From Candidatus Nanohaloarchaea archaeon (GTDB lineage: Archaea > Nanohalarchaeota > Nanosalinia > Nanosalinales > Nanosalinaceae), in the NCBI GenBank assembly GCA_013343275.1, contig CP046106.1, positions 744,001 to 808,000 on the forward strand: a stretch of DNA of 64,000 nucleotides, in the 5' to 3' direction. Shown here piece after piece: positions 37,626 through 50,952 of this stretch. A program made the position numbers and the translations under genes. Position 1 is the first letter of the stretch, and every line of letters begins with the position of its first letter. The notes beneath the pieces are model-generated. The model was not told the origin of the DNA. It did not search any database and worked only from the letters and a program-made list of their open reading frames with translations.

Positions 37626-37700
37626 GCGGAGCTGGTGTAGTCTGGCCCATCATTTCACCCTGTCACGGTGAAGACGCGGGTTCAAATCCCGCGCTCCGCG
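37626..37700 (+). tRNA. tRNA-Asp (GTC)
   Basis: Acceptor GCGGAGC pairs with GCTCCGC, the anticodon stem TCACC/GGTGA holds loop CTGTCAC (anticodon GTC), and the T arm GCGGG/CCCGC encloses TTCAAAT. Discriminator is G, CCA is not encoded and no intron is present. Confidence 0.96.
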
Positions 37701-37721
37701 CTCTAACGTTTTCTAAAAGCT

Positions 37722-38006
37722 TTAAATATTATAAAATGCTTTTATACTCTTTTTTTTTGGCCTTGGTCTAATTTTGTTTGATGGATAGAAATTGCCATCG
37801 CCGGCGAATATTCTGCATAGCTCGCCTATTACTTCTTCATCTTTGGGGATCTGAAGGGAGTTTTCTTTCTGCTTCTGACCGGCCTCTTTCCTGAAGTGGT
37901 AGTAGACAGTCGACTTTGGAAGGTCTAGTCTTTCCTTTATAGAGTTGACAGAATCTCCTTGTACAGCAAGAGATTTTATCTCATTAATCTGGCTCTCTGA
38001 GGCCAT
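37722..38006 (-). pseudogene. Truncated HTH / LAGLIDADG-type endonuclease remnant
   Basis: The 94-residue product begins with a helix-turn-helix (QINEIKSLAVQGDSVNSIKERLDLPKSTVYYHF) and ends soon after GELCRIFAGDGNFYPSNK, which looks like the start of a LAGLIDADG homing-endonuclease domain (family pattern FxGxFxGDGxFY). The rest of that domain is missing: after a nine-A run the frame stops 22 bases from tRNA-Asp. I read it as a decayed selfish element near a tRNA; a short functional HTH protein is the alternative. Confidence 0.55.
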
Positions 38007-38093: not shown

Positions 38094-40199
38094 ATGTATA
38101 TGATCGTAGGCGGTTACCAGATCAGCAATATTCTAATCGCGGCCCTTCTTGTATCTTCAGTAGCAGGACTAGGAGTATCGACAGATTCCTTCTCAGGTAT
38201 AACTGATTCAATGTCCAATATACTGCCCACAGGCTCTGTGGATTCTGGCAACCAGACAGATCAGAACAATACCAACAGCCAGGGAGATTCAGATCAAAAT
38301 ACGGGAGGCCAGGACTCTGATCAAAACAACCAAGGTTCGGGAGATGGTTCTTCTGGAGATAATACTGATACAGGCCAAAATACTGGATCAGATAATGATA
38401 CTGGAACCGGAACTCCTACTGACGGCAATAATACGCAGGATGTAGTTAACGAGACAGAACAAACTGTAAACGAGACAACAGGAAACCAGACAGATGGGAC
38501 TGTAACCAATGAGACAGAACAAACTACGGGGGATAATCAGACAACTACTGATGGAAACGAGACCAACACGGATACTTCTGATCATATTAGCTTCTTCGAG
38601 CCGTCAGAAGGCTACGAACTAAATACTTCATCTCTTCCTGCATCTTTCTCCTTGCTAGCTTCTATTAGCGCCTCCAATGCCAGTTACGAAGTTAGAATGG
38701 AGGGTTCCATCCGTTTATCAGGGCAATTAGATGGTGATAAAACGCTGGATAAAAGCTTGCAGGTAGACTCTGAAGGACAGCACACCTTAGATATAATTTT
38801 GTTCAAAGATGGAAGTCAGCTAGCGAAGGAATCTCGAACGTTTACCGTAAACCTTGATGGCAGCTCAACAACCACAACAGGGTTCTACATTCCTGGCAAT
38901 CTAACGGCTGAAGAATATTCTACTCTAACCTTATACGATGAAAACGGAAATACTGTAAGCGGCAAGACAATATATCTTGACGGCAGCAGCATAGGAGAAA
39001 CAGACCAATACGGCCAACTAGAGTTCCTAGTACCTAACAAGCAAGAAATAACACTATCTACAGATTCGAGACAGAAAACATATCAGGTACATAACTACAC
39101 TGATTCAAGTATTGATCTGTCTCTTAGTTTCGCTAAAAAAGTATATCAGGGCAGAACTAACACTCTTACAGTAACAAATAATGGAGCGGCTGTTGAGAGC
39201 GCAGAAGTATACGCTAATGGTGTTCCAAAAGGTTCTACGAACTCTAGTGGTCAAGTCAAGTTCACTATACCAGAAGAAAGCTCGATTACAATTAAAGTAA
39301 ATAAGAATGGATCTTCTGATGATGAGACATTTACAGCAGAAGTACCTCCTATAGATGTGACGTTCTTGAACCCTGATAAAGGAGAGAGTATAGAGGACTA
39401 CAAACTGGAGTTCGACTTCAATGTCGAGCTTACTGAGTCAGGAACTGTAACTTTATCTGTAGAAGGATCACAAGTTCTCCAAAAGAGCTTAGGCGCTGGT
39501 AAGACTAAAATAACAAAAAAGATGGAATTTGTAAATTCTGGGACAAGACAGTACACTGTAACAGTAGACACATCATCCGAAACAAGAACTCATTCGAGAG
39601 AATTCACTACAACGCAAGACATGCCGCCTATAGATATCAATATTACTTCTCCAAATTCAGGTGAATCTATCAGCAACTACAAAACGACTGTTGATTACAG
39701 TATAAGATCTCCAGAAAGCTTCGACTACAAAGTGACTGTAGATGGAAGAGAACTAGTTGATCTAGGTTATCCGGATGGCCAGCTTTCCAAGACAACGCAG
39801 GCTAACTGTCTAGATTCAGGATCACACACTTTGACTGTAGAGGCGACAGGAGATCAGAGAGGAACTACCTACTCCGAATCCGTACAGTTTGACACTACTG
39901 AATCACACCCAATAGCTGACATGGTTATAAGTGGTCCTTCAGAAGGAGAAACGGTCAGTTCGCCGTTCTCGGTTAACTACACTGTCTTCACTTGCACAAG
40001 CATGAGTTTCGAATCAAGAATAGAACAAAGCGGCAGCACAGTCAAGACAGTACAGGGAGGAGGACAAACCCTAGGCGCTTACTCCTACATCAGATCCCCG
40101 ACAACAGAGTACGACCTTAGCTCAGGAAGCTACAGTCTGGTGCTCGAAGCCAATGCTGGAAGCACACTGACAAAATCAAACTCATTCGAGGTGAATTAG
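38094..40199 (+). CDS. Membrane-anchored surface protein with Ig-like domains (unit 1)
   Basis: The 701-residue protein has one N-terminal membrane segment (ISNILIAALLVSSVAGLGV, about residues 10-30), a disordered Asn/Gln/Asp/Thr/Gly linker (about 40-160) full of N-x-T sequons, and four or five beta-sandwich domains from about 165 to the end, with carboxypeptidase-regulatory-like repeats such as NGVPKGSTNSSGQVKFTIPE and the DMPPIDINITSPNSGESI boundary. The outside is probably N-glycosylated by AglB. TAATTAAAAC about 26 bases upstream of ATG 38094 suggests a leaderless start. The secreted partner starts six bases downstream. Probably a cell-surface stalk or adhesin anchor. Confidence 0.8.
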   Translation: MYMIVGGYQISNILIAALLVSSVAGLGVSTDSFSGITDSMSNILPTGSVDSGNQTDQNNTNSQGDSDQNTGGQDSDQNNQGSGDGSSGDNTDTGQNTGSDNDTGTGTPTDGNNTQDVVNETEQTVNETTGNQTDGTVTNETEQTTGDNQTTTDGNETNTDTSDHISFFEPSEGYELNTSSLPASFSLLASISASNASYEVRMEGSIRLSGQLDGDKTLDKSLQVDSEGQHTLDIILFKDGSQLAKESRTFTVNLDGSSTTTTGFYIPGNLTAEEYSTLTLYDENGNTVSGKTIYLDGSSIGETDQYGQLEFLVPNKQEITLSTDSRQKTYQVHNYTDSSIDLSLSFAKKVYQGRTNTLTVTNNGAAVESAEVYANGVPKGSTNSSGQVKFTIPEESSITIKVNKNGSSDDETFTAEVPPIDVTFLNPDKGESIEDYKLEFDFNVELTESGTVTLSVEGSQVLQKSLGAGKTKITKKMEFVNSGTRQYTVTVDTSSETRTHSREFTTTQDMPPIDINITSPNSGESISNYKTTVDYSIRSPESFDYKVTVDGRELVDLGYPDGQLSKTTQANCLDSGSHTLTVEATGDQRGTTYSESVQFDTTESHPIADMVISGPSEGETVSSPFSVNYTVFTCTSMSFESRIEQSGSTVKTVQGGGQTLGAYSYIRSPTTEYDLSSGSYSLVLEANAGSTLTKSNSFEVN

Positions 40200-40205
40200 T
40201 TTCCG

Positions 40206-43200
40206 ATGAGCAGTATCAGAAAGTTAAGTATTTTTCTTATTCTTCTGCTTGTTTCTTCATCTCTTGCTTCATCGGCTTTAATTGATAGGGATTCTTGGGA
40301 GTGTACTAATGAGGGCTGGAGCTTCTCTGAGAACACTGGAGACTCTGGAGACTGGGGCTGGAACTCTTGTTCCACTAACTATGTGACCTACGGTAGCTAC
40401 TCTGCTAGAATGGGGTCGATGGTAGGAAGCGGTAGTACTTATGGAGATAGCGTGGCTTCGGGGACATGGGGCCAGATATACAAGACTTTCGACCTCACAA
40501 ATGTTAACCAGATTACTTTCGATATCAGGACTCGATGGAACAGCAGAGCGACTGTAGATGTTATAGTAGGAGGTAACACTCTTTGGAGTAAAGGCGGATG
40601 CGGATATACTTGTACCTATACAGACCAAACTATAGATGTTTCAGGATATTCTGGCAATACACAAATTAAGATAAGACAAACTTCTACTACGTCCAACTAT
40701 GATTACTGGTATGCTGTGGATAACTGGAGAGTACAAGGTAATACTAACTCAGCCCCTTATGCTCCTTCCAGCCCTAACCCAAATAATGGTGCCTCGGATG
40801 TCTCCACTTCTCCCTCCATCTCCGCTTACTATAATGACCCGGATGGAGACTCAGGTACTCTTTACTACTATACTGGGGGAGGCAGTTTTATTGATTCGTG
40901 CGGAGTTTCAGACGGATCTCGCTGTAGTGTAACATATAGTGGAGCAAGTAGTTCTGGTACTACTTATGACTGGTATGCTGTAGCTGATGATGGTTCAGCC
41001 AGTACATCATCTAGCACTTGGAGCTTCACGACCAACTATGCGCCTAGCGCGCCATCGAACCCTTCTCCTAACAACGGGCAGGATACGGTTTCTACTAGCC
41101 CTACTCTTAGTGTAGATGTTAGTGATCCAGATGGAGATAGTATGGATGTAAGGTTCTATGACGGTAATGGGGACTTGATTGGTACTGATACAAGCGTAGG
41201 TAGCGGGTATACTGCATCTGTTACTTGGAGCGGTCTTAGTACGGGTACTACTTATGACTGGTATGCTGTGGCTGATGATGGTCCAGAAACTACTTCATCT
41301 AGTACTTGGAGTTTTACTACAGTCCATAAGCCAAATCAACCGTTTAATCCAGCGCCGTTTGATGGGGAGAATGATGTTTCAACGTCTCATAATCTTTATG
41401 TTGATGTTAGTCATCCTGATGGCCTGAGTATGGATGTAGATTTCTATATAGATGATGGTGGTGGTTTCACATATGTTGGAACAGATACAGGTGTTTCTGA
41501 CGGTGGTAGGGCTTCGATTAACCCTTCGTTAAGTACGGGAGGTGGTTATAATTGGTATGCTGTTGCGAAAGCTCAGGGTCATTCGCGCCAAAGCCCTACA
41601 TGGGGTTTCTCCACAAATGATATTCCTTCAGTAGATAGTGTCTCAAAGACAGATTCATCAAATAACCATGCTTTTAGCAGTGTTACAGCTATGGTCAGAG
41701 ACTCTGATGGACAGGGGGATATCTCTTCTGCAACTTTAACTGTTGATGATGCTGATGGTAATACACAGAGCTATTCAGGAACTATTGATACTTCTGCAGG
41801 AGGATCTAATGAGGCGCGAGTGAGCTTCGGATCTGTTAGCTACTCTGATAATGCTGGGTGGGGAGGAAATGAACAGGTACAGCTAGATGTACAGGTAACA
41901 GATACTCATAGTAGAACGGCAACAGGTTCATCCTTAGCTCGATTCCCTAACCATGCACCTACTATTTCATCTGGCTACAGTTATAGTGATGATGCCCAGA
42001 ACCATGCTTTTACTTTGAGTATTGATGCGCAGGATGTGGATGCAGGAGGTAGCGAAATCACAAGTTGCACTGTATCTCATAATGATGGTGACGGTAATTC
42101 GTACACGAGTAGTGGAAGTCTTGTACAGGCCGAAACTGCCACATGCAGCTTCACCATTTCAGCCAGTTCCTTCACAGGCTATACCAAAGGAGAAGTCATT
42201 AATCATCAGGTAACTTTCACTGATAGGCACGGCGCAACAGTAATCTCGTCTTCAGGACAGCATAGAATCCCTAACAGCGCTCCTACAGCTACTAATCTCC
42301 AGCCTTCTGGTAGTGAAGTGCAGTATGGCCCTACTTTGAATGCTACCTATAATGATGCTGATGGAGATGTAGGTAATCTGACGTTCTACAATACTAGCAG
42401 TGGCAATGTTATTGGCAAGGTTACAGGTCTCTCTCCGGGACAGCAGGGTAGTATGCAGTGGAGTAGTGCAGATACTCCTGGTACAACTTACAACTTCACT
42501 GTAAAAGCGTTCGATGGGGTAAATGCCACGAATACTACTGAGAACTTCACAACTATCTATGAACCGAAGGAGCCTTATGATCCGTGGCCGACGAACCAGT
42601 CGACGGTAGATACTACGACTAGAACGGATGATGAGATAGCTGCAAGTGTTAAGGTTGTACATCCTGATGGACGTGATATGCATGTTCAGTTTGTGAATGC
42701 GTCTAATGATCAGATTATGGAAATTGATTATGGTGTTGCATCAGGTACTAGGGCCAAGATCACCAACATCGGTAACAAGCTACGTGACAAGACAAACACT
42801 ACCTACAACTGGTATGCTGTATCAAAAGATACGGGAACTGGTGAAAAGACTCGTAGCAGCCTCTTCACGTTTGATACTGTCGAAGTCGGTGATGTTATGT
42901 TTGATGTGATGCAGGGCCGTAATGAGAACATGGATATTACCGGTAACTCTGACAATGGTTACCGGAAGATCAAGTTCGAGATCACTTCAACACAGATGGA
43001 TCCTATTCCAAAAGTTACAGTCAATGAGACCTCTACAGGTGATCTGATTAAGTCGTGGACGGATGTTGCTAACAACTCTGTCTTGACTGTTGACCTGGTG
43101 CAGGATGGGGGCCAGGAATGGAACCTGAATACTGACAGTCAGTATCAGTGGTTTGTTGAGGCTAGTGAGGGGCCTAACATCCTTGGTCAGAGCTTGAATT

Positions 43201-43487
43201 ATACGATATACACCTATAACGTAACTCTTGACTGGGATCGTGCGGAGAAGTACTACAATGTCTACCAATACGATATTTACCGCGCTCAGGACACTGGTGG
43301 CAATCTGGTATTCAACTACGGCAGTGGAGATTATGATGTGGTTGGTTCTCTTCCGGAGACCAGCTTCAATGACTCGGGTCCTGGATTGAGTACTGGTACT
43401 TTCTGCTGGAAGGTAGCAGCCTCCAATCCGACAGGTAGTAGCCCGGCAATACCTTCAGGAGAAGGCAACTGTAAGACACTCAACTAA
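40206..43487 (+). CDS. Very large secreted Ig-repeat protein with N-terminal carbohydrate-binding-like domain (unit 1)
   Basis: The 1093-residue protein starts with a signal peptide (LSIFLILLLVSSSLASSA). Residues about 25-180 form a Cys-containing jelly-roll-like domain (WSFSENTGDSGDWGW, GQIYKTFDLTNVNQITFDI). Repeats of about 96 residues follow from about 182 (SSPNPNNGASDVSTSPSI...GTTYDWYAVADDG...SSTWSFTT), then different Ig/Fn3-like repeats to the end. There is no C-terminal membrane segment or sorting signal, so retention probably depends on its anchored partner. Codon usage is richer in T-ending codons than in the ribosomal genes. Likely role: adhesion or contact with the host cell, inferred. 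Confidence 0.8.
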   Translation: MSSIRKLSIFLILLLVSSSLASSALIDRDSWECTNEGWSFSENTGDSGDWGWNSCSTNYVTYGSYSARMGSMVGSGSTYGDSVASGTWGQIYKTFDLTNVNQITFDIRTRWNSRATVDVIVGGNTLWSKGGCGYTCTYTDQTIDVSGYSGNTQIKIRQTSTTSNYDYWYAVDNWRVQGNTNSAPYAPSSPNPNNGASDVSTSPSISAYYNDPDGDSGTLYYYTGGGSFIDSCGVSDGSRCSVTYSGASSSGTTYDWYAVADDGSASTSSSTWSFTTNYAPSAPSNPSPNNGQDTVSTSPTLSVDVSDPDGDSMDVRFYDGNGDLIGTDTSVGSGYTASVTWSGLSTGTTYDWYAVADDGPETTSSSTWSFTTVHKPNQPFNPAPFDGENDVSTSHNLYVDVSHPDGLSMDVDFYIDDGGGFTYVGTDTGVSDGGRASINPSLSTGGGYNWYAVAKAQGHSRQSPTWGFSTNDIPSVDSVSKTDSSNNHAFSSVTAMVRDSDGQGDISSATLTVDDADGNTQSYSGTIDTSAGGSNEARVSFGSVSYSDNAGWGGNEQVQLDVQVTDTHSRTATGSSLARFPNHAPTISSGYSYSDDAQNHAFTLSIDAQDVDAGGSEITSCTVSHNDGDGNSYTSSGSLVQAETATCSFTISASSFTGYTKGEVINHQVTFTDRHGATVISSSGQHRIPNSAPTATNLQPSGSEVQYGPTLNATYNDADGDVGNLTFYNTSSGNVIGKVTGLSPGQQGSMQWSSADTPGTTYNFTVKAFDGVNATNTTENFTTIYEPKEPYDPWPTNQSTVDTTTRTDDEIAASVKVVHPDGRDMHVQFVNASNDQIMEIDYGVASGTRAKITNIGNKLRDKTNTTYNWYAVSKDTGTGEKTRSSLFTFDTVEVGDVMFDVMQGRNENMDITGNSDNGYRKIKFEITSTQMDPIPKVTVNETSTGDLIKSWTDVANNSVLTVDLVQDGGQEWNLNTDSQYQWFVEASEGPNILGQSLNYTIYTYNVTLDWDRAEKYYNVYQYDIYRAQDTGGNLVFNYGSGDYDVVGSLPETSFNDSGPGLSTGTFCWKVAASNPTGSSPAIPSGEGNCKTLN

Positions 43488-43586
43488 CTACGCAAACCTC
43501 TCTATTTCTTTGTCCTTATACATGCTGATACCTTGATATTTTGGCCCTAGAAGCCTTATAACTGGATAATTCTCATTCAAAGATAA

Positions 43587-46160
43587 ATGTCGAAAGGTTT
43601 AGTGCTCGGCGGATACCAGATCAGCAACGTACTGATAGCAATCCTTCTAGTGGCCTCAACAACAGGCGCAGGAGTAGCCACCGACTCCTTCTCAGGTATA
43701 ACTGATTCAATGTCCAACATTCTACCATCAAACTCTGTAAGCCCTGATAACAAGACAGATCGGAACAGTACTGGCAATCAAGGAGATACAGGAGGCCAGG
43801 ATTCTGATCAAAACGATCAAGGTTCGGAGGATGGTTCTGGTGATGGTTCCTCAGATAGCTCGGATTCTGATTCTGAAGGATTTCTGGACGATATACTAGG
43901 TGGCGATGAAAAGCAGAAAGATCAGAACTCTGACGGCCAAACTGACAATACAACTGAAAAAAATACAGATACTTCAGATAATGAAACTCAGACTCCTGAT
44001 ACAGGCAATACGACAAATACTACAACTGCGAGTATAGCTTCTATCTCGGACCCTCAACCTGCCCAGTACTTCCCTGCCTACGAGACATCCTCTGTACCTC
44101 TATACGTAGAGTTCTCCGGAGAAGACGCAAACTTTGAGATTTGGCTGGACGGCCAGTCCTATCTTACAGGACAGATCTCAGGTACTAAAACAGTAAATAG
44201 GACGCTAGACCTCTCTACAACAGGCAGTCATGAACTGAAGATAGAGGTCAGACAATCAGGAGAAGTAGTCGATTCTCTTACCAGAACATTCGAAATAGCA
44301 GACTCAGCAATACAGGAAACAGGCTTCGAGAAAACAACCACTGTAAGGACAGGAGCAGAAGCAACCTTCAGACTTCTCTACAATGGAGAACCGGTCTCTG
44401 GAGCAGCAGTATCGATGGGGGGAACACAGGTAGGCCAGACGAATCAGGACGGAGAGATAACAGTCCAGGTACCTTACCAGGACACAATTACATTATCGAC
44501 GGACTACCAGGAGATAGGATCTCAAACATTTAACGTAACGCAAGACATACCGGAACCGACAGTAACCCTTGTAAACCCGGTTGACTCGGAAACATTCGAT
44601 ACTCCAACCAGCCAGCAAAAAGACGTACAGTTCAACGCAACAGTCGATATAGCAGAAGACTCCGGTACAGCATCCCTGATGATCGATGGCTCCGAAGTCT
44701 ACTCGCAACAGCTTTCACAGGGAGAAAATACAATTACTACGACACAGAGCCTAGCAGGAGGAACTCACAACTGGAAGATAGAAGTCGACACGCCGGAATA
44801 CAATGTTTCATCCTCCAGTAGAAGCCTGACAGTCAACGAGGTACAGGTGCAGGACGGTATCTCCCTACAGAACACGCCGCCAACAGTTGGGAACGTCAAC
44901 TACGTAAGGCTCTACAACAACGGAGAACCGGTGACAAACCACGACATAACCATCAACGGCCAGACCTACACAACAAACTCTCAGGGAGAAGCACAGTTTA
45001 CAGTACCGAACGCACAGGAACTAACAATCTCTTCCAGTTCTCCCGATTACCAGAAAACATACACTATAGAAGGATACAACCCAGAGATCAGCATGAGCTT
45101 CTCCTTCTCCAAAACCCTGTACCAGGGCCGACAGAATACCTTGACAGTGACCAGCGACGGAAGCGCAGTTAGCGGTGCAACAATCTACGCCAACGGAAAG
45201 CAAAAAGGCCAGACGGACTCCTCTGGCCAGTTAACATTCACGATACCGGAAGAAGACTCTGTCACAATTAAAGCAGTGAAAGATAATTCCGAGAAAAACA
45301 AGACATACACCGCCCAGATTCCACCGATCGATATTACCTGGTTCGGCCCTGACGACGGTGCCAGTATCAATGATTACAAGACAACCTTCGACTTCTCACT
45401 CGGTCTTCAGAGTTCAGCTACCGCCACCCTGACAGTCGGAGGCCAGCAAAGGCTGCAGAAAAGCCTGAGCTCGGGGACTCACAGCATCACCAAAGAAATC
45501 AAGTTCGAAAACTCGGGAACAAGAGACTACACCCTAGAAGTACAGACAGACGGTAATAGAAGGACGAAGACCGGTAGCTTTACAACTGAGCAGGATATGC
45601 CGCCGATACAGATCAGCATCAGCAACCCATCCAGCGGAGAAACCATCAACGACTACAAAACTACGATTCAGTACGGATTTGACTCTCCAGAAGACTTTAA
45701 CTATACTCTTTCAGTAGATGGACGCCATTTAGATAGTTTAAGTCTTCTATCGGGACAGACCTCTAGGCAAGCGGTAGCTAACTGTTTAACTCAGGGGCAG
45801 CATACTTTAGAGATTGTAGCAAAGGGAGAAAAAACAGGGAAGACTACTAAGACCATACAGTTTACTTCGAGCGTAGCACAGCCTTTGGCTGATATACAAA
45901 TTGATTCGCCTAAGTCATCAGAAACCGTTCAGAATCCTGTCGGCTTTTATTATAAGATTACTGCGTGCCAGGATATAAGCTACGATGTCTCTACTGAAGG
46001 CCAAAATCTTGATTCCGGAAGTCTCAGCGCCTATTCTATAGCACTTTCTCCTCCAGGACTTGAAAAAGATTATTCCTCCTTAGGTAAGCATAATTGGACG
46101 ATTTCAGTAAGTAATGGTTCTCAAACTTTGAAGAAAGAAATAATGTTTAGTGTGGAATAA
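43587..46160 (+). CDS. Membrane-anchored surface protein with Ig-like domains (unit 2)
   Basis: This 857-residue paralogue of the 38094 protein has the same N-terminal segment (GGYQISNVLIAILLVAS) followed by TDSFSGITDSMSNILP, a longer acidic Ser/Asp/Asn linker (about 50-150), and five or six beta-sandwich domains. It contains one or two extra domains compared with unit 1, inserted around residues 330-470. The stop overlaps the start of its secreted partner (TAATG). Base composition shifts in the last 500 bases, where AT-rich codons replace the C/A-ending codons used before. Confidence 0.8.
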   Translation: MSKGLVLGGYQISNVLIAILLVASTTGAGVATDSFSGITDSMSNILPSNSVSPDNKTDRNSTGNQGDTGGQDSDQNDQGSEDGSGDGSSDSSDSDSEGFLDDILGGDEKQKDQNSDGQTDNTTEKNTDTSDNETQTPDTGNTTNTTTASIASISDPQPAQYFPAYETSSVPLYVEFSGEDANFEIWLDGQSYLTGQISGTKTVNRTLDLSTTGSHELKIEVRQSGEVVDSLTRTFEIADSAIQETGFEKTTTVRTGAEATFRLLYNGEPVSGAAVSMGGTQVGQTNQDGEITVQVPYQDTITLSTDYQEIGSQTFNVTQDIPEPTVTLVNPVDSETFDTPTSQQKDVQFNATVDIAEDSGTASLMIDGSEVYSQQLSQGENTITTTQSLAGGTHNWKIEVDTPEYNVSSSSRSLTVNEVQVQDGISLQNTPPTVGNVNYVRLYNNGEPVTNHDITINGQTYTTNSQGEAQFTVPNAQELTISSSSPDYQKTYTIEGYNPEISMSFSFSKTLYQGRQNTLTVTSDGSAVSGATIYANGKQKGQTDSSGQLTFTIPEEDSVTIKAVKDNSEKNKTYTAQIPPIDITWFGPDDGASINDYKTTFDFSLGLQSSATATLTVGGQQRLQKSLSSGTHSITKEIKFENSGTRDYTLEVQTDGNRRTKTGSFTTEQDMPPIQISISNPSSGETINDYKTTIQYGFDSPEDFNYTLSVDGRHLDSLSLLSGQTSRQAVANCLTQGQHTLEIVAKGEKTGKTTKTIQFTSSVAQPLADIQIDSPKSSETVQNPVGFYYKITACQDISYDVSTEGQNLDSGSLSAYSIALSPPGLEKDYSSLGKHNWTISVSNGSQTLKKEIMFSVE

Positions 46161-49100
46161 TGAGAAAGTATCTTGCTTTGCTCGGTACTCTAGTATTTCT
46201 TCTGCTGAGTATTCCTGCCGCTACTGCTTCTACCGTCACCTGGTCTGATAGTAGCGACTGGAATAACGCTGTTTCAGATTTTGGTGTCGTTCATGAGTCT
46301 GTCACAAATACTGACCACAACGATGCAGGAAAGCTTCAGAAAGGGTATCCGATTCAGAATCCGGTCGTGAGTTATGGCCTCGTTGGATACTGGCCTCTAC
46401 AAGAGGATAGCGGCGATACGGCCTATGATTTTAGCGGATATAACGATGCATCGGCTAGTGCTCCGACTCAAGGCAGTAGCGGTATTTTAGGATCTTCAAG
46501 TTACTACTTTAATACTGAGAGTGCTGACGCATCTACGATAGACCTGGAGTACTATAGCTTTAACGCCTGGATTAATGATGAAGGAAGTACCTATTACGCA
46601 CGAGCGATGAGTAATGGGCGCGATGGTACTGATCCGAGCGCTACCTATGCAATGGGTTCAAGAAACGGATGGCCGACTGCTGTAATGAGGAAGAATGGTA
46701 ATACTTATACTATTGGCTCGGGTCTAAATCCATCAGATTGGACTATGGTGACTGTTACGTATGATGGCGACACGTTAAAAGTTTATACTGATGGTTCTTT
46801 AACCGGATCCAGTACAGCTCCCTCTGGCCCTATAGGCGATGTTACAGGCCCCTTCAACCTTGGATCGACTGAAAGGTATCCTGGAAATGAAGGTATAACA
46901 GGTTATTTACAAGAGGCAAGTTTGTACAACAGGGCACTTTCTGCCTCCGAGATCCAATCTCTATACGAAGTAGCGGCTACACCAGGAACACTCACCACAG
47001 GATGGAAAACATTCTCATCCAACAGAGACATGAACTCTTTACAATTAGAAAATGTGCAGGCCTCTTTGAATGGCGGTAGTATCACTGTTTATGTGGAGAC
47101 TCAGAATGGCGAGGTCAGCGATCCGATTAGTCTGGATGGTAGTGGTGGTCCTTATAGTGTGACGGGGTTGTCGACTGAGGAGGATCAGTTCCGTTTGGAT
47201 ATCAGGTTGGATAATAGTGATGTGACGAGTACGCCTACTTTGTCGGCGATTGATTTGACGGGTAATAAGGCTAATTCTCCTCCTGCTGCTCCTTCGAATG
47301 AGGATCCTGCTGACAATGCTGATCCTGTATCTTTGAGTCCTTCTTTGAGCGTATTTGTCGACGATCCGGATGGCGATAGTATGGATGTTACTTTCTATGT
47401 TGATACGAATAATGATGGGAGTTATGAGACTACGAAGACTAATACAGGTGTTGCGAGTGGCAGTACTACTTCTGTAAGTCTTTCTTCTCTGGCCACTAGC
47501 CAGACAGTTAACTGGTATGTGGTGGCTGATGACGGTAGAGCTACTACTCAGTCAAGTACTTGGAGTTTCACGACTGTAGGTGTTCCAAGTATTACTTCAG
47601 CGCCTTCTCCGAGTGATGGCGCGGTAGATGTTTCCACCTCTAAGAATCTGGCTATTGATGTTTCTCATCCTGATAATCTAGATATGACTGTTGAGTTCTC
47701 TATGGATGGTTCGTATGTAGGCAGTGATACTGTTGCAGGTAGCGGTACTGCTTCTTACAGTCCTTCCCTGGGTTACAGTGAGGATCATTCCTGGAGTGTC
47801 GATGTCTATACGCAGGGTTACTCCACTCAGACGAGCGGAGGCGCCTGGAACTTCCATACCGTGCATGATGTAAGCGCTTCTCTTTCCGGGCCTTCCAAAA
47901 GCCCTGCCAGTATTGATCCTACGTTGAGTGCGACAGTCAGCCACAGTGATTCTGCTGAGACTGTTACTGTGGATTTCGTTAACACAGATAATGGCAACAC
48001 TATTTGCAGTGTTTCCGGTATAGGGAATGCTGAGACTGCTACCTGTGATACTTCTGGAAGCAGTTTCGGTAGTAGCCCCGGTACGACTTATAACTGGGAG
48101 GTCCAGCTTTCGGGTGATGAGGGCTCTGAGTCGTGGACGAGCAGTCAGAGAAGCTTCACCACTATTTCAAATCCTAACGTGAACAGAGTTGAGCCTGGTT
48201 CGAACTCTGGTGTGTCTACAGACCAGAATCTGGTTGTTGATGTCAGTCATCCTGATGGGAAGAATATGAATGTCGAGTTCATGATCAGGAAAGCAGGGCA
48301 GACATCTTTCAGTACAGTAGATACCAAGACAGATGTTTCTGGCCAGGTTTCGGCCAATCCCTCTTTGAGTGACGGCACAAGTTACGAGTGGCGTGTTGAT
48401 GTAAGGACTGTGGGATACAGTACAGACACAATGAGTTCCATTTGGGGCTTTACCACTAACTATGTGCCTTCAGTCTCAGGCATTACCAAGTATGACGCGT
48501 CTGATGGCCACGCTTTCAGGAACGTTTCTGCTATAATCAGCGATCAGGACGGAGATGACACGATCGTTGATGCAAATCTTACAGTAGATAATGACGGTGG
48601 ACTGGAAACTTATGTTGAGTACGATGAAGTTAGTATTGACAGAAGTTATGGAGGAGACGATAATCAGGCCAACGTAACCTTTGGCAGAGTCAATGTTGGG
48701 GATAGTAACTGGGGCCTAACAGGTATAGATCTTCAGGTTGAAGGTATCGATCAGGAGGGTAACGTTGGGTCAAATACACTATCTAATGTCCAGTTCCCTA
48801 ACCATGCTCCGACAGTAGCCTCAGGTTACAGTTACAGCGATAGTCCGCAGGCCCACTCCTACACTTTGAGTATTGATGCCCAGGATGTGGATGATACTGA
48901 TGAAGAGATTGCTTCATGTACAGTCGACCATAACGACGGCGACGGAAACTCCTATACTGGCAAGGCCGGTAGCCTGGCTTCTGGTGAGACTGCTACCTGC
49001 AGCTTCACGATAGACAACAGTACCTCAGGTTACAGGTTCGGTGAGATGATCAACCACAGGGTAACTTTCAAGGATGCACACGGTAAGACTGTGACCTCAA

Positions 49101-50347
49101 CGTGGGCCTCGCACAGAATCCCTAACAGTCTGCCTTCAGCTACGAATTTGAGGCCTGCTAGTGATAATACTTCGTATGACGCGGATTTGAAGGCTACCTA
49201 CAATGATCCTGACGGAGATGTAGGGAACTTGACATTCTACAATACCACTAGCGGTGAAGAGTTGGGTGCTGTGGCTGACCTTGCGCCCGGAGAGCAGGGA
49301 ACTGTTGATTTGGTTGGAGAGTTAGCTCCTGGTACTACTTACAACTTCACTGTGGAGGCCTCGGATGGTGTTAATTCCACTAACAGTACTGAGAACTTCA
49401 CAACTATTTACAGGCCAGATGAGCCTTATGATCCGTTCCCTGAGAATGACACGGTTATAGATACTACTACCAGGAGCGGAGATGATATTGCAGCGAGTGT
49501 AAAGGTTGTACAGGATGATGGGCACACTATGAATGTACAGTTCATTAATGCAAGCGATGATAGCCCTCTAGGTACAGATTATGATGTGGAGTCGGGTACG
49601 CGTGCCAAGTTGACAAGTATTGGTAATACTTTGCGTGATGAGACGAATACTACGTATCGCTGGTATGCTGTAGCTACAGATCAGACGACTGGAGAATCAG
49701 TGAGAAGTGATACGTTCGTCTTCAGGACTCCCGAAGTAGGTGAGGTAAGGTTTGATGTGATGCAGGGGCGTAATGAGAACATGGATATTACTGGTAACTC
49801 TGATAATGGTTATCGGAAGATCAAGTTTGAGGTTACGTCCACGGAAATGGATCCAATCCCAACTGTGATCGTCAATGAGACCGGTACCGGGAATATGATC
49901 AAGTCGTGGAGCAATGTCGCCAACAACTCTGTCCTAACGATAGATTTAGTGCAGGATGGTTCTCAGGACTGGAATCTAGATACGGACGAAAAGTATGAAT
50001 GGACGGTGGAGGCTCGTGATGGCTCTAATATCTTAGGAAACCGTAGCTACGATATCTACACGTACAACGTGACTCTTGACTGGGACAGGGCTGAGAAATA
50101 CTACAATGTCTATCAGTATGATATTTACCGTGCTGAGCAGAGGTCTGGTGTGGATCTGACCTTTAACTATGGGAACGGAGATTACAATCTAGTCGGTTCT
50201 CTTCCAGAGACGAGTTTCAATGACTCGGGGCCGGGCATTGTTCCCGATCATACAGGTACTTTCTGTTGGAAGGTAGCTGCATCCAACCCTACGGGTAGCA
50301 GCCCGGCGATTCCTTCAGGAGAAGGCAACTGCAAAACACTGAACTAA
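46160..50347 (+). CDS. Very large secreted Ig-repeat protein with LamG-like N-terminal domain (unit 2)
   Basis: The 1395-residue protein has a signal peptide (YLALLGTLVFLLLSIPAATAS), then a LamG/concanavalin-like domain at about 70-275: GYWPLQEDSGDTAYDFSGYN, DWTMVTVTYDGDTLKVYTDG, and GYLQEASLYNRALSASEIQS are diagnostic. From about residue 375 it carries Ig-like repeats (PADNADPVSLSPSLSVFVDDP, SSTWSFTTVG) and ends in the same way as the unit 1 protein. LamG domains often bind sugars or matrix proteins. No membrane anchor is seen. Segments 47040-47900 are notably T-rich in codon choice. Confidence 0.83.
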   Translation: MRKYLALLGTLVFLLLSIPAATASTVTWSDSSDWNNAVSDFGVVHESVTNTDHNDAGKLQKGYPIQNPVVSYGLVGYWPLQEDSGDTAYDFSGYNDASASAPTQGSSGILGSSSYYFNTESADASTIDLEYYSFNAWINDEGSTYYARAMSNGRDGTDPSATYAMGSRNGWPTAVMRKNGNTYTIGSGLNPSDWTMVTVTYDGDTLKVYTDGSLTGSSTAPSGPIGDVTGPFNLGSTERYPGNEGITGYLQEASLYNRALSASEIQSLYEVAATPGTLTTGWKTFSSNRDMNSLQLENVQASLNGGSITVYVETQNGEVSDPISLDGSGGPYSVTGLSTEEDQFRLDIRLDNSDVTSTPTLSAIDLTGNKANSPPAAPSNEDPADNADPVSLSPSLSVFVDDPDGDSMDVTFYVDTNNDGSYETTKTNTGVASGSTTSVSLSSLATSQTVNWYVVADDGRATTQSSTWSFTTVGVPSITSAPSPSDGAVDVSTSKNLAIDVSHPDNLDMTVEFSMDGSYVGSDTVAGSGTASYSPSLGYSEDHSWSVDVYTQGYSTQTSGGAWNFHTVHDVSASLSGPSKSPASIDPTLSATVSHSDSAETVTVDFVNTDNGNTICSVSGIGNAETATCDTSGSSFGSSPGTTYNWEVQLSGDEGSESWTSSQRSFTTISNPNVNRVEPGSNSGVSTDQNLVVDVSHPDGKNMNVEFMIRKAGQTSFSTVDTKTDVSGQVSANPSLSDGTSYEWRVDVRTVGYSTDTMSSIWGFTTNYVPSVSGITKYDASDGHAFRNVSAIISDQDGDDTIVDANLTVDNDGGLETYVEYDEVSIDRSYGGDDNQANVTFGRVNVGDSNWGLTGIDLQVEGIDQEGNVGSNTLSNVQFPNHAPTVASGYSYSDSPQAHSYTLSIDAQDVDDTDEEIASCTVDHNDGDGNSYTGKAGSLASGETATCSFTIDNSTSGYRFGEMINHRVTFKDAHGKTVTSTWASHRIPNSLPSATNLRPASDNTSYDADLKATYNDPDGDVGNLTFYNTTSGEELGAVADLAPGEQGTVDLVGELAPGTTYNFTVEASDGVNSTNSTENFTTIYRPDEPYDPFPENDTVIDTTTRSGDDIAASVKVVQDDGHTMNVQFINASDDSPLGTDYDVESGTRAKLTSIGNTLRDETNTTYRWYAVATDQTTGESVRSDTFVFRTPEVGEVRFDVMQGRNENMDITGNSDNGYRKIKFEVTSTEMDPIPTVIVNETGTGNMIKSWSNVANNSVLTIDLVQDGSQDWNLDTDEKYEWTVEARDGSNILGNRSYDIYTYNVTLDWDRAEKYYNVYQYDIYRAEQRSGVDLTFNYGNGDYNLVGSLPETSFNDSGPGIVPDHTGTFCWKVAASNPTGSSPAIPSGEGNCKTLN

Positions 50348-50388: not shown

Positions 50389-50952
50389 ATGGATTTGAGC
50401 GATATTAATCCGAGTTTCAAGCAGATTGCTGCAGCGATGGCAGTAGTTTTCTTGCTGATTACAGGCCTTAATACTATGCTTGCGCCTGATGGAGGTTATG
50501 CCGGCGATTTAGCCGATACTATTTCCAACAACGATAATTCTAACAACGGGGATGCACAGAACCAGTCTCAGGATCAGACAGATCCTTACTATGAGAAGGC
50601 CACTGATGATTCTACCAGTTCCGACAGCGGCAACAGTGATGGTTCCGGGTCTCTGAATGAGACTGAGAAGACGAAGATCGAGAACAACTTTGAAGGTTAT
50701 GTAAATGCCAGCAACCGTGATAACGGCATCTATCTTGATAGGAAGGCTGTTGCCGGAGAATGGAACAATATTCAGGTGATGTACAATGGTAATCCTGTTG
50801 AAGGTGCCGAAGTGCTGGTGAACGGCCAGAGTATAGGTGCTACTGGAGAATATGGTGGCGTCTACTTCAAGGTTCCACAGGCCGATCGTATAACTGTGAG
50901 GACGACTACTGAAAACCTTGGAACTGTTGAGAATACTTACAAGGTGTACTGA
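50389..50952 (+). CDS. Small membrane-anchored protein with one Ig-like domain
   Basis: The 187-residue protein has one membrane segment (IAAAMAVVFLLITGLNTML, about residues 12-32), an Asn/Asp/Gln/Ser linker and a C-terminal beta domain with GNPVEGAEVLVNGQSIGATGEYGGVYFKV, similar to a single repeat of the large anchored proteins. It looks like a minimal version of them. AAGGTG before its stop serves the pilin-like gene that follows. Confidence 0.75.
   Translation: MDLSDINPSFKQIAAAMAVVFLLITGLNTMLAPDGGYAGDLADTISNNDNSNNGDAQNQSQDQTDPYYEKATDDSTSSDSGNSDGSGSLNETEKTKIENNFEGYVNASNRDNGIYLDRKAVAGEWNNIQVMYNGNPVEGAEVLVNGQSIGATGEYGGVYFKVPQADRITVRTTTENLGTVENTYKVY

What the first reader, a model, noticed from the sequence alone, without database searches (positions are those of the whole stretch)
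38094..50347. Tandem-duplicated surface modules with swapped N-terminal domains
Two anchored/secreted gene pairs lie in tandem. The large secreted proteins (1093 and 1395 residues) share repeats and an almost identical C-terminal region of about 200 residues, but one carries a jelly-roll domain at the N-terminus and the other a LamG domain. This looks like a stalk with exchangeable tips. Secreted partners have no anchor, so the anchored partner may hold them. In an organism likely to live attached to another archaeon, they are candidates for host recognition.
Basis: partly seen in the sequence, partly recalled or inferred. Interest (0 to 1): 0.8.

Follow-up and report, generated by a model that had tools for sequence, protein, structure and literature searches.

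The report
Symbiont adhesins with halovirus-like tips
A tiny archaeon related to species that live on the surface of salt-loving archaea carries two tandem stalk-like surface proteins with matching bases but unrelated tips, and both tips resemble parts of the tails of viruses that infect salt-loving archaea, which suggests that symbiont and viruses recognise the host surface in related ways.

Summary
In detail: A1-B1-A2-B2 at 38094-50347, in a nanohaloarchaeal (DPANN) genome. A proteins have an N-terminal membrane helix. B proteins are secreted, with unrelated N-terminal tips, a shared Fn3-like stalk and a C-terminal ~210 residues that are 80% identical (not 'almost identical'). That C-terminus is constrained by selection (last 90 residues dN 0.08, dS 1.4), not recently copied.

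Main new result: both tips, and only the tips, resemble haloarchaeal-virus tail proteins. B2 residues 21-368 match over full length the LamG proteins of HHTV-2, HCTV-2 and HVTV-1/2 (beside the baseplate gene) and the C-terminal half of HHTV-1 gp36 (PHROG E 3e-46). The B1 tip matches the C-terminal domain of the invertible tail fibres of phiCh1/phiH (PHROG E 1e-5; hhalign 93.5%). Stalks and A proteins match no phage family.

A second locus, conserved across the family, carries membrane-anchored B-like proteins with one C-terminal family but nine unrelated tip groups, an independent replicate of tip exchange. The A-B pair recurs at two loci; in Nanosalina it adjoins a pilus operon.

Host recognition is favoured; that A holds B is inferred from gene pairing only. 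New variant of a known kind.

The parts
38094..40199 (+). A1, 701 aa: N-terminal membrane helix (aa 3-21), Ser/Asn/Asp/Thr-rich linker (to ~aa 160), then a rod of about six beta-sandwich domains (aa 160-701)
   Evidence: helix; AlphaFold2 of aa 160-701: pLDDT 86.9, all beta; Ig/macroglobulin-like matches
40206..43487 (+). B1, 1093 aa: signal peptide, tip, stalk, C-terminal region; no membrane helix beyond the signal peptide
40272..40772 (+). B1 tip (aa 23-189), jelly-roll/CBM-like; related to the C-terminal domain of phiCh1/phiH tail fibres
   Evidence: fold hits CBM27/29/36, phiCh1 ORF34-5 is the top viral fold hit, hhalign 93.5%, phrog_18723 1.4e-5
40773..42857 (+). B1 stalk (aa 190-884), Fn3-like repeats
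   Evidence: homologous to the B2 stalk and to related loci; no phage or PHROG match
42858..43487 (+). B1 C-terminal region (aa 885-1093), probably two Fn3-like domains, with a Cys pair at 1067/1089
   Evidence: 80% identical to B2; dN 0.08-0.18 against dS 1.4-1.6; weak match to a canonical Fn3 domain in another archaeon
43587..46160 (+). A2, 857 aa: same plan as A1 with an extra insert of about 160 residues
   Evidence: 41% identical to A1 over aa 349-856; first 78 residues 72% identical
46160..50347 (+). B2, 1395 aa: signal peptide, LamG-containing tip, stalk, C-terminal region
46220..47275 (+). B2 tip (aa 21-372): N-segment 'TVTWSDSSDWNNAVSDFGVVHES', LamG, C-segment; matches full-length halovirus tail proteins
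   Evidence: 96-99% of the tip aligned to HHTV-1, HHTV-2, HCTV-2, HVTV-1/2 proteins; phrog_18503 2.6e-46; 15 IMG/VR contigs, four of them these isolates, six of the others with tail genes next to it
47276..49708 (+). B2 stalk (aa 373-1183), Fn3-like repeats
   Evidence: no PHROG match
49709..50347 (+). B2 C-terminal region (aa 1184-1395)
   Evidence: a 64% identical tail in Nanosalina J07AB43
50389..50952 (+). C, 187 aa: membrane helix, linker and one A-like domain
   Evidence: 28-37% identical to A domains; orthologue in J07AB43 at 43-50% identity
50954..51442 (+). D, pilin-like protein with the class III-type signal 'GQSAIEYVTTYGWML', TTG start
   Evidence: homologues next to pilus operons in relatives
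37626..37701 (+). tRNA-Asp just upstream of the cassette

Best explanation
B1 and B2 are secreted host-attachment adhesins of a nanohaloarchaeal ectosymbiont. Each is a long Fn3-like stalk. At its free N-terminus it carries a module of the same families that haloarchaeal tailed viruses carry in their tails: a LamG-containing module on B2 and a CBM-like jelly roll on B1. The tips most likely bind glycans or glycoproteins (for example S-layer sugars) of the haloarchaeal host. The constrained C-terminal ~210 residues dock to a common partner on the symbiont, most likely the membrane-anchored A rod encoded in the same pair, possibly together with the pilin-like D and the A-like C. Tips are replaced in evolution while stalk and docking part are kept, which would adjust host range. 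Shown: gene layout, homologous stalk and C-terminus, non-homologous tips, sequence relationship of the tips to viral tail proteins, strong constraint on the C-terminus, recurrence of the A-B pair. Inferred: ligand, docking of B to A or pilus, effect on host range.
For: Tips and only tips match virus families: B2 tip phrog_18503 2.6e-46, B1 tip phrog_18723 1.4e-5, while both stalks, A1 and A2 match none; phrog_18723 contains phiCh1 ORF34/36 and phiH 165, and B1 aligns to its C-terminal end. 96-99% of the B2 tip aligns to the virus proteins, which are encoded directly after a T4 gp9/gp10-like baseplate gene or the tape measure. The 75-aa N-segment alone hits only Haloarcula viruses (E 1e-15) and no plasmid, with 63% identity over 70 aa to one IMG/VR contig. 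hhalign of B1 tip with the tail-fibre C-terminus 93.5%, 2.3e-7. Published: phiCh1 tail fibres have a C-terminal galactose-binding domain and the host S-layer carries galactose (PMC4284463); tail adhesins set host range in one group of haloviruses (PMC8651126); the S-layer protein is the receptor of two archaeal tailed viruses (PMC12494034). C-terminal constraint. A-B pair at two loci. Tip exchange at a second locus.
Against: No binding, expression or localisation data. The virus modules are neighbours of virion genes, but their own role in receptor binding is inferred. The B1 match is to one domain and modest (tblastn E 0.03 in the full collection; model pLDDT 56.5), and that jelly roll also occurs in an unrelated archaeon. 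LamG domains are common; haloarchaeal chromosomes were not searched for the full module. Direction of transfer is unresolved. Tips of the other locus that were tested mostly show no viral match. In G003 and G015 the B next to A has its own membrane anchor.
Confidence: 0.62

Rival explanations
1. Generic halophile surface proteins: LamG and CBM-like domains are common in archaea, so the likeness to viral tail proteins reflects a shared pool of carbohydrate-binding domains rather than host recognition. The proteins could scavenge polysaccharide or form part of the cell envelope.
For: LamG proteins are widespread in nanohaloarchaea and predicted for interactions with carbohydrates (PMC10266531). 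The B1-type jelly roll also occurs in an unrelated archaeon beside DUF2341. The B1 tip resembles CBM27, CBM29 and CBM36.
Against: The B2 match spans the whole module including an N-segment outside LamG that hits only Haloarcula viruses; plasmid LamG proteins, including haloarchaeal ones, match at most 63% of it with E no better than 3e-5. Equally halophilic stalks and A proteins match no virus. No catalytic domain is present.
Confidence: 0.22
2. Pilus-associated adhesins: A, B, C and D are accessory parts of a type IV pilus, with B displayed on the D filament rather than held by A on the membrane. (Not exclusive of the best explanation: it differs in the holder.)
For: D carries a class III-type pilin signal and directly follows C. 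In J07AB43 the A...B-C-D-RtcB block is divergent from and adjacent to PilB-TadC-TadC-pilin; in G010 D alone sits in the same geometry. Same-genus BNXNv lacks this PilB type and all of A-D.
Against: In the window genome the pilus operon lies elsewhere (G000:C1:615802-620838). A-B occurs without D at the AlaX locus in G003 and G015. A and B have no class III signal. Co-occurrence rests on few genomes.
Confidence: 0.35
3. The conserved C-terminus of B is an anchor or sorting signal of its own (S-layer or lipid attachment), and A is an independent surface protein that merely shares the operon.
For: B-like proteins at the AlaX locus have a C-terminal membrane helix after a 'VPGI...QLL' motif in the same position, so the C-terminus is where anchoring happens in the family.
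Against: B1/B2 have no membrane helix and no C-terminal hydrophobic segment; the C-terminus looks Fn3-like with a Cys pair. A and B stay adjacent at two different loci.
Confidence: 0.25
4. Recent duplication or gene conversion explains the similar C-termini, without functional constraint.
For: Synonymous divergence in the C-terminal half (1.1-1.9) is somewhat lower than in the rest.
Against: dS of 1.4-1.6 is near saturation while dN is 0.08-0.18; the same tail is kept in another genus at 64% identity.
Confidence: 0.05

Closest known systems
LamG-domain tail proteins of haloarchaeal tailed viruses (HHTV-2 gp63, HCTV-2 gp59, HVTV-1/2, HHTV-1 gp36; phrog_18503)
   Same: Homology along the whole of B2 aa 21-368, including the N-terminal segment, LamG and the C-segment; many viral ORFs start where mature B2 should start
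   Different: In viruses it is a virion gene beside baseplate or tape-measure genes; here it is behind a Sec signal and in front of a stalk of about 1000 residues
phiCh1 ORF34/ORF36 and phiH PhiH1_165 invertible tail fibres (phrog_18723)
   Same: The B1 tip matches their C-terminal domain, described as galactose-binding for phiCh1
   Different: The repeat shaft of the fibres and the Int1 invertible switch are absent; identity is low (about 34% over 77 columns)
C-anchored, variable-tip proteins of the MetRS-HAD...AlaX locus in Nanohaloarchaea (described here)
   Same: Fn3-like stalk, signal peptide, N-terminal tip that differs between genomes and between tandem copies
   Different: They end in a conserved domain plus membrane helix; B1/B2 have the ~210-residue Cys-bearing region and an A partner instead
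SPEARE giant proteins and LamG operons of cultivated nanohaloarchaea (PMC6642349, PMC10266531)
   Same: Extracellular adhesion domains with LamG; a 3,315-aa protein of G003 (probably SG9) carries two B2-type modules
   Different: SPEARE proteins are giant, membrane-anchored and carry a cytoplasmic ATPase-like domain
Variable surface proteins of Haloquadratum walsbyi genomic island 1 (PMC4535781)
   Same: Syntenic surface-protein genes with changing domain make-up
   Different: Free-living haloarchaeon; there the variation was explained by escape from viruses, not by host attachment

Membership tests
phrog_18503 / halovirus LamG tail protein module | profile match over the module's whole length | tested here: met
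   aa 3-349 of the tip to profile 456-804, E 2.6e-46; 96-99% of the tip aligned to isolates' proteins
phrog_18503 / halovirus LamG tail protein module | N-segment outside LamG ('TW..ASDWD.A..E.GVVHE') | tested here: met
   75-aa N-segment hits 9 Haloarcula virus records only
phrog_18503 / halovirus LamG tail protein module | encoded in a virus tail cluster | tested here: not met
   B2 lies in a chromosomal surface-protein operon; it shares the module and is not a virus gene
phiCh1/phiH invertible tail fibre (phrog_18723) | C-terminal receptor-binding-type domain | tested here: met
   E 1.4e-5; hhalign 93.5%; top viral fold hit
phiCh1/phiH invertible tail fibre (phrog_18723) | SQTAMDAVS-type repeat shaft | tested here: not met
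   B1 stalk has no PHROG or phage match
phiCh1/phiH invertible tail fibre (phrog_18723) | Int1 invertible segment | tested here: not met
   no recombinase recognised among the ORFs next to the cassette
C-anchored AlaX-locus family | C-terminal membrane helix | tested here: not met
   no helix in B1/B2 beyond the signal peptide
SPEARE proteins | giant length, membrane anchor and cytoplasmic ATPase-like domain | tested here: not met
   1093 and 1395 aa, no such domain in Pfam, no anchor
Type IV pilus component (A, B) | class III signal peptide | tested here: not met
   A and B lack it by inspection of the N-termini; D has it
Host-receptor-binding adhesin | binds the haloarchaeal host surface | not testable with these tools
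   needs binding assays

The most novel reading that the evidence does not exclude
An ectosymbiotic DPANN archaeon has built its host-attachment proteins from receptor-binding modules shared with viruses that infect the same kind of hosts. Two such modules of different families are mounted on duplicated stalks, so that symbiont and viruses recognise, and may compete for, the same haloarchaeal receptors. Exchange of tips with viruses would then be a route by which symbiont host range changes.
Probability: 0.4. Interest if true: 0.9.

Novelty: new variant of a known kind. Interest (0 to 1): 0.76.

Why it matters
How DPANN archaea choose their hosts is an open question, and candidate adhesins have so far been named mainly by generic domains. 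Here the two candidate tips belong to families whose other members sit in the tails of viruses that infect haloarchaea, so the receptor can be looked for with existing virus-host systems (Haloarcula with HHTV-1/HHTV-2/HVTV-1, Natrialba with phiCh1, Halobacterium with phiH). It also predicts a testable link between virus resistance and symbiont attachment: host surface changes that block the virus should also block the symbiont. The conserved locus with nine unrelated tip groups gives a ready catalogue for relating tip type to host.

Tried and rejected
Virus or provirus origin of the whole cassette: rejected, because stalks, A1 and A2 match no phage record or PHROG family and neighbours are chromosomal and syntenic. 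Recent duplication or gene conversion as the cause of the similar C-termini: rejected on dS. Homology of the two tips: rejected. Insertion of the cassette into the window genome only: less likely than loss in the same-genus BNXNv, because J07AB43 has A...B-C-D and G010 has D at the same CMK/RtcB position. The C-terminal region elsewhere: no relative in GTDB 220 contigs or IMG/VR by peptide patterns, and only J07AB43 convincingly among 394 genomes (the G020 hit is spurious and the G317 hit is a generic Fn3). A solved relative by sequence for B1 tip, C-terminus or B2: none convincing. Close relatives of the B1 tip in IMG/VR: none. Tree of the B2-type module to find the direction of transfer: unresolved, long branches. 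The A1 rod model matches only generic Ig and macroglobulin chains, so it gives no clue to a partner.
Full report
WHERE IT IS. The window is C1:744001-808000 of a single-contig genome of 915,886 bases. Its same-genus relative G001 is 1,046,959 bases, exactly the length published for Ca. Nanohalovita haloferacivicina BNXNv (PMC10266531). G017 contains a contig of 65,032 bases that is Ca. Nanosalina sp. J07AB43 GL982572.1. So the window is nanohaloarchaeal; cultivated members live attached to haloarchaea (PMC10266531, PMC6642349). G010 (973,463 bases) is probably Nanohalobium constans LC1Nh (from memory, not verified). G003 is probably SG9, since it encodes a 3,315-aa giant protein of the published length.

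OBSERVATION. A1-B1-A2-B2 are as described, followed by C and pilin-like D, then CMK, archease and RtcB. A1/A2 carry an N-terminal membrane helix; aa 160-701 of A1 fold confidently into about six beta-sandwich domains (pLDDT 86.9). B1/B2 have signal peptides and no other hydrophobic helix. B1 and B2 align from B1 residue 183 to the end at 54.9% identity; the N-termini do not align and their profiles are unrelated (hhalign probability 1.6%). The C-terminal ~210 residues are 80% identical, not nearly identical.

AGE AND CONSTRAINT. Along B1/B2, dN falls from 0.60 in the stalk to 0.18 and 0.08 in the last two segments, while dS stays at 1.1 or more, mostly near saturation. The duplication is therefore old, and the C-terminus is held by selection. 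The same happens at the other end of A: the first 78 residues of A1/A2, membrane helix and juxtamembrane part, have dN 0.19 against 0.4-0.9 elsewhere. The two most constrained parts are thus the C-terminus of B and the membrane end of A.

THE TIPS. The B2 tip (aa 21-368) matches proteins of Haloarcula viruses HHTV-1, HHTV-2, HCTV-2, HVTV-1 and HVTV-2 over 96-99% of its length at 26-30% identity, E 8e-22 to 3e-8. In HHTV-2, HCTV-2 and HVTV the module is the whole protein. In HVTV-2 it directly follows a gene annotated as T4 gp9/gp10-like baseplate protein, and homologues of that gene precede it in HHTV-2 and HCTV-2. In HHTV-1 it is the C-terminal half of the gene after the tape measure. A scan of IMG/VR found 15 contigs, four of them these isolates. 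Of the others, L187, L188, L191 and L194 have the baseplate homologue upstream, and L185/L190 have tape measure plus gp36-type N-terminus. The first 75 residues, which lie mostly outside LamG, hit only the nine Haloarcula virus records (best E 1e-15) and no plasmid, and are 63% identical over 70 residues to one IMG/VR contig. Plasmid-borne LamG proteins, including haloarchaeal ones, match at most 63% of the module, E 3e-5 or worse.

The B1 tip is CBM-like. Its modest model (pLDDT 56.5, pTM 0.58) matches CBM27, CBM29 and CBM36 in the PDB. Its best viral structure match is phiCh1 ORF34-5, and the phiH tail protein is tenth. By sequence its only hit among 50,697 phage records is phiH, inside the invertible tail-fibre segment (E 0.03). 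Profile comparison with the C-termini of phiH, phiCh1 and ChaoS9 fibres gives 93.5% and E 2.3e-7. PHROGs place it at the C-terminal end of phrog_18723 (1.4e-5), the family of phiCh1 ORF34/36 and phiH 165. [quoted passage not shown]

CONTROLS. In one scan of the same operon, the two tips match virus families, and both stalk-plus-C-terminus parts, A1 and A2 match none. tblastn of the B1 stalk and of A2 against phages gives nothing at E 0.1. So halophilic composition alone does not produce the matches. Tips from the other locus in G003 and G001 also give no phage match, so the viral likeness is not general to nanohaloarchaeal surface proteins; a glycine-rich tip in G007 does match PHROGs of unknown function.

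A SECOND LOCUS REPLICATES TIP EXCHANGE. Between MetRS/HAD and an AlaX-like gene, nearly every family genome read there, the window genome included, has one or two tandem B-like proteins, most with a C-terminal membrane helix. Leaving out the helix, 91 of 105 pairs of their C-terminal regions are related at E<1e-3 (one linked family of 14, with only G006 outside), whereas the N-terminal regions fall into nine unrelated groups, 7 of 91 pairs related. Tips include vWA, C-type lectin plus vWA, WD40 propeller, DUF2341 and glycine-rich domains. The tandem pair in G004 is the clearest case: 72.5% identity over the last 360 residues, with a WD40 tip on one and DUF2341 on the other.

THE A-B PAIR AND THE PILUS. 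A lies directly upstream of B in the window (twice), G003 and G015. J07AB43 has an A N-terminus and a B tail around assembly gaps, and G016 has A at a contig end near RtcB. The pair thus recurs at two loci. The unanchored B type is seen only in the window and J07AB43, in both cases with A. In J07AB43 the A...B-C-D block is divergent from a PilB-TadC-TadC-pilin operon, and in G010 D alone sits in that geometry. BNXNv lacks that PilB type and all of A-D. Hence docking to A is my first choice, with a pilus role for C/D and perhaps B as a serious rival; neither is tested.

MECHANISM AND CONFIDENCE. Shown: layout, tip/stalk/C-terminus anatomy, selection on the C-terminus, sequence relationship of both tips to virus tail proteins, recurrence of tip exchange and of the A-B pair. 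Inferred: tips bind host glycans or S-layer; B docks on A or the pilus; tip exchange adjusts host range. Host range in one group of haloviruses is set by tail adhesins (PMC8651126), and the S-layer protein is the receptor of two archaeal tailed viruses (PMC12494034), which makes the inference reasonable. Which way the modules moved between viruses and nanohaloarchaea is unresolved.

NOVELTY. LamG surface proteins and giant adhesins in nanohaloarchaea are known (PMC10266531, PMC6642349). The papers found here did not describe halovirus-type tail modules as tips of tandem symbiont adhesins, nor the family-wide variable-tip locus, but the library holds only open papers and not all were read. I rate it a new variant of a known kind with high interest.

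Noticed in passing
L111:8351-10696 (own genome C1:442350-444695), and L049, L050, L054-L056, L112-L117, L119: Family-wide locus between MetRS/HAD and AlaX with C-anchored surface proteins that share a C-terminus and carry nine unrelated N-terminal tip groups (vWA, C-type lectin, WD40, DUF2341, glycine-rich and others).
   Followed up: yes
L059:187-10134 (-), G003: A 3,315-aa giant protein, probably SPEARE 3 of SG9, carries two copies of the B2-type halovirus module.
   Followed up: partly
window 37722-38006 (-): 94-aa HTH ORF beside tRNA-Asp looks like a truncated remnant of an HTH-LAGLIDADG protein found intact at the corresponding region in G010 and G011 (L082:12477-13220, L088:13157-13903).
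   Followed up: partly
RtcB of G004, G009, G012 (L073, L075, L076, L079, L080, L090): RtcB is interrupted after about residue 96 by a long insert (in frame where read, G009), consistent with an intein.
   Followed up: no
L114:6815-8176, G007: The glycine-rich tip matches phrog_22713 (8e-22) and phrog_7388, families of unknown function; haloviral adhesins can be glycine-rich (PMC8651126), so this may be another virus-like tip.
   Followed up: no
L057:4745-7009, G001: BNXNv has a large surface protein with several LamG-like repeats, a different repertoire from the window genome despite the same genus.
   Followed up: no
L164:1-2385 (-), G297: DUF2341 protein of another archaeon carries two jelly-roll domains like the B1 tip, so this tip family is not confined to nanohaloarchaea and viruses.
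   Followed up: partly
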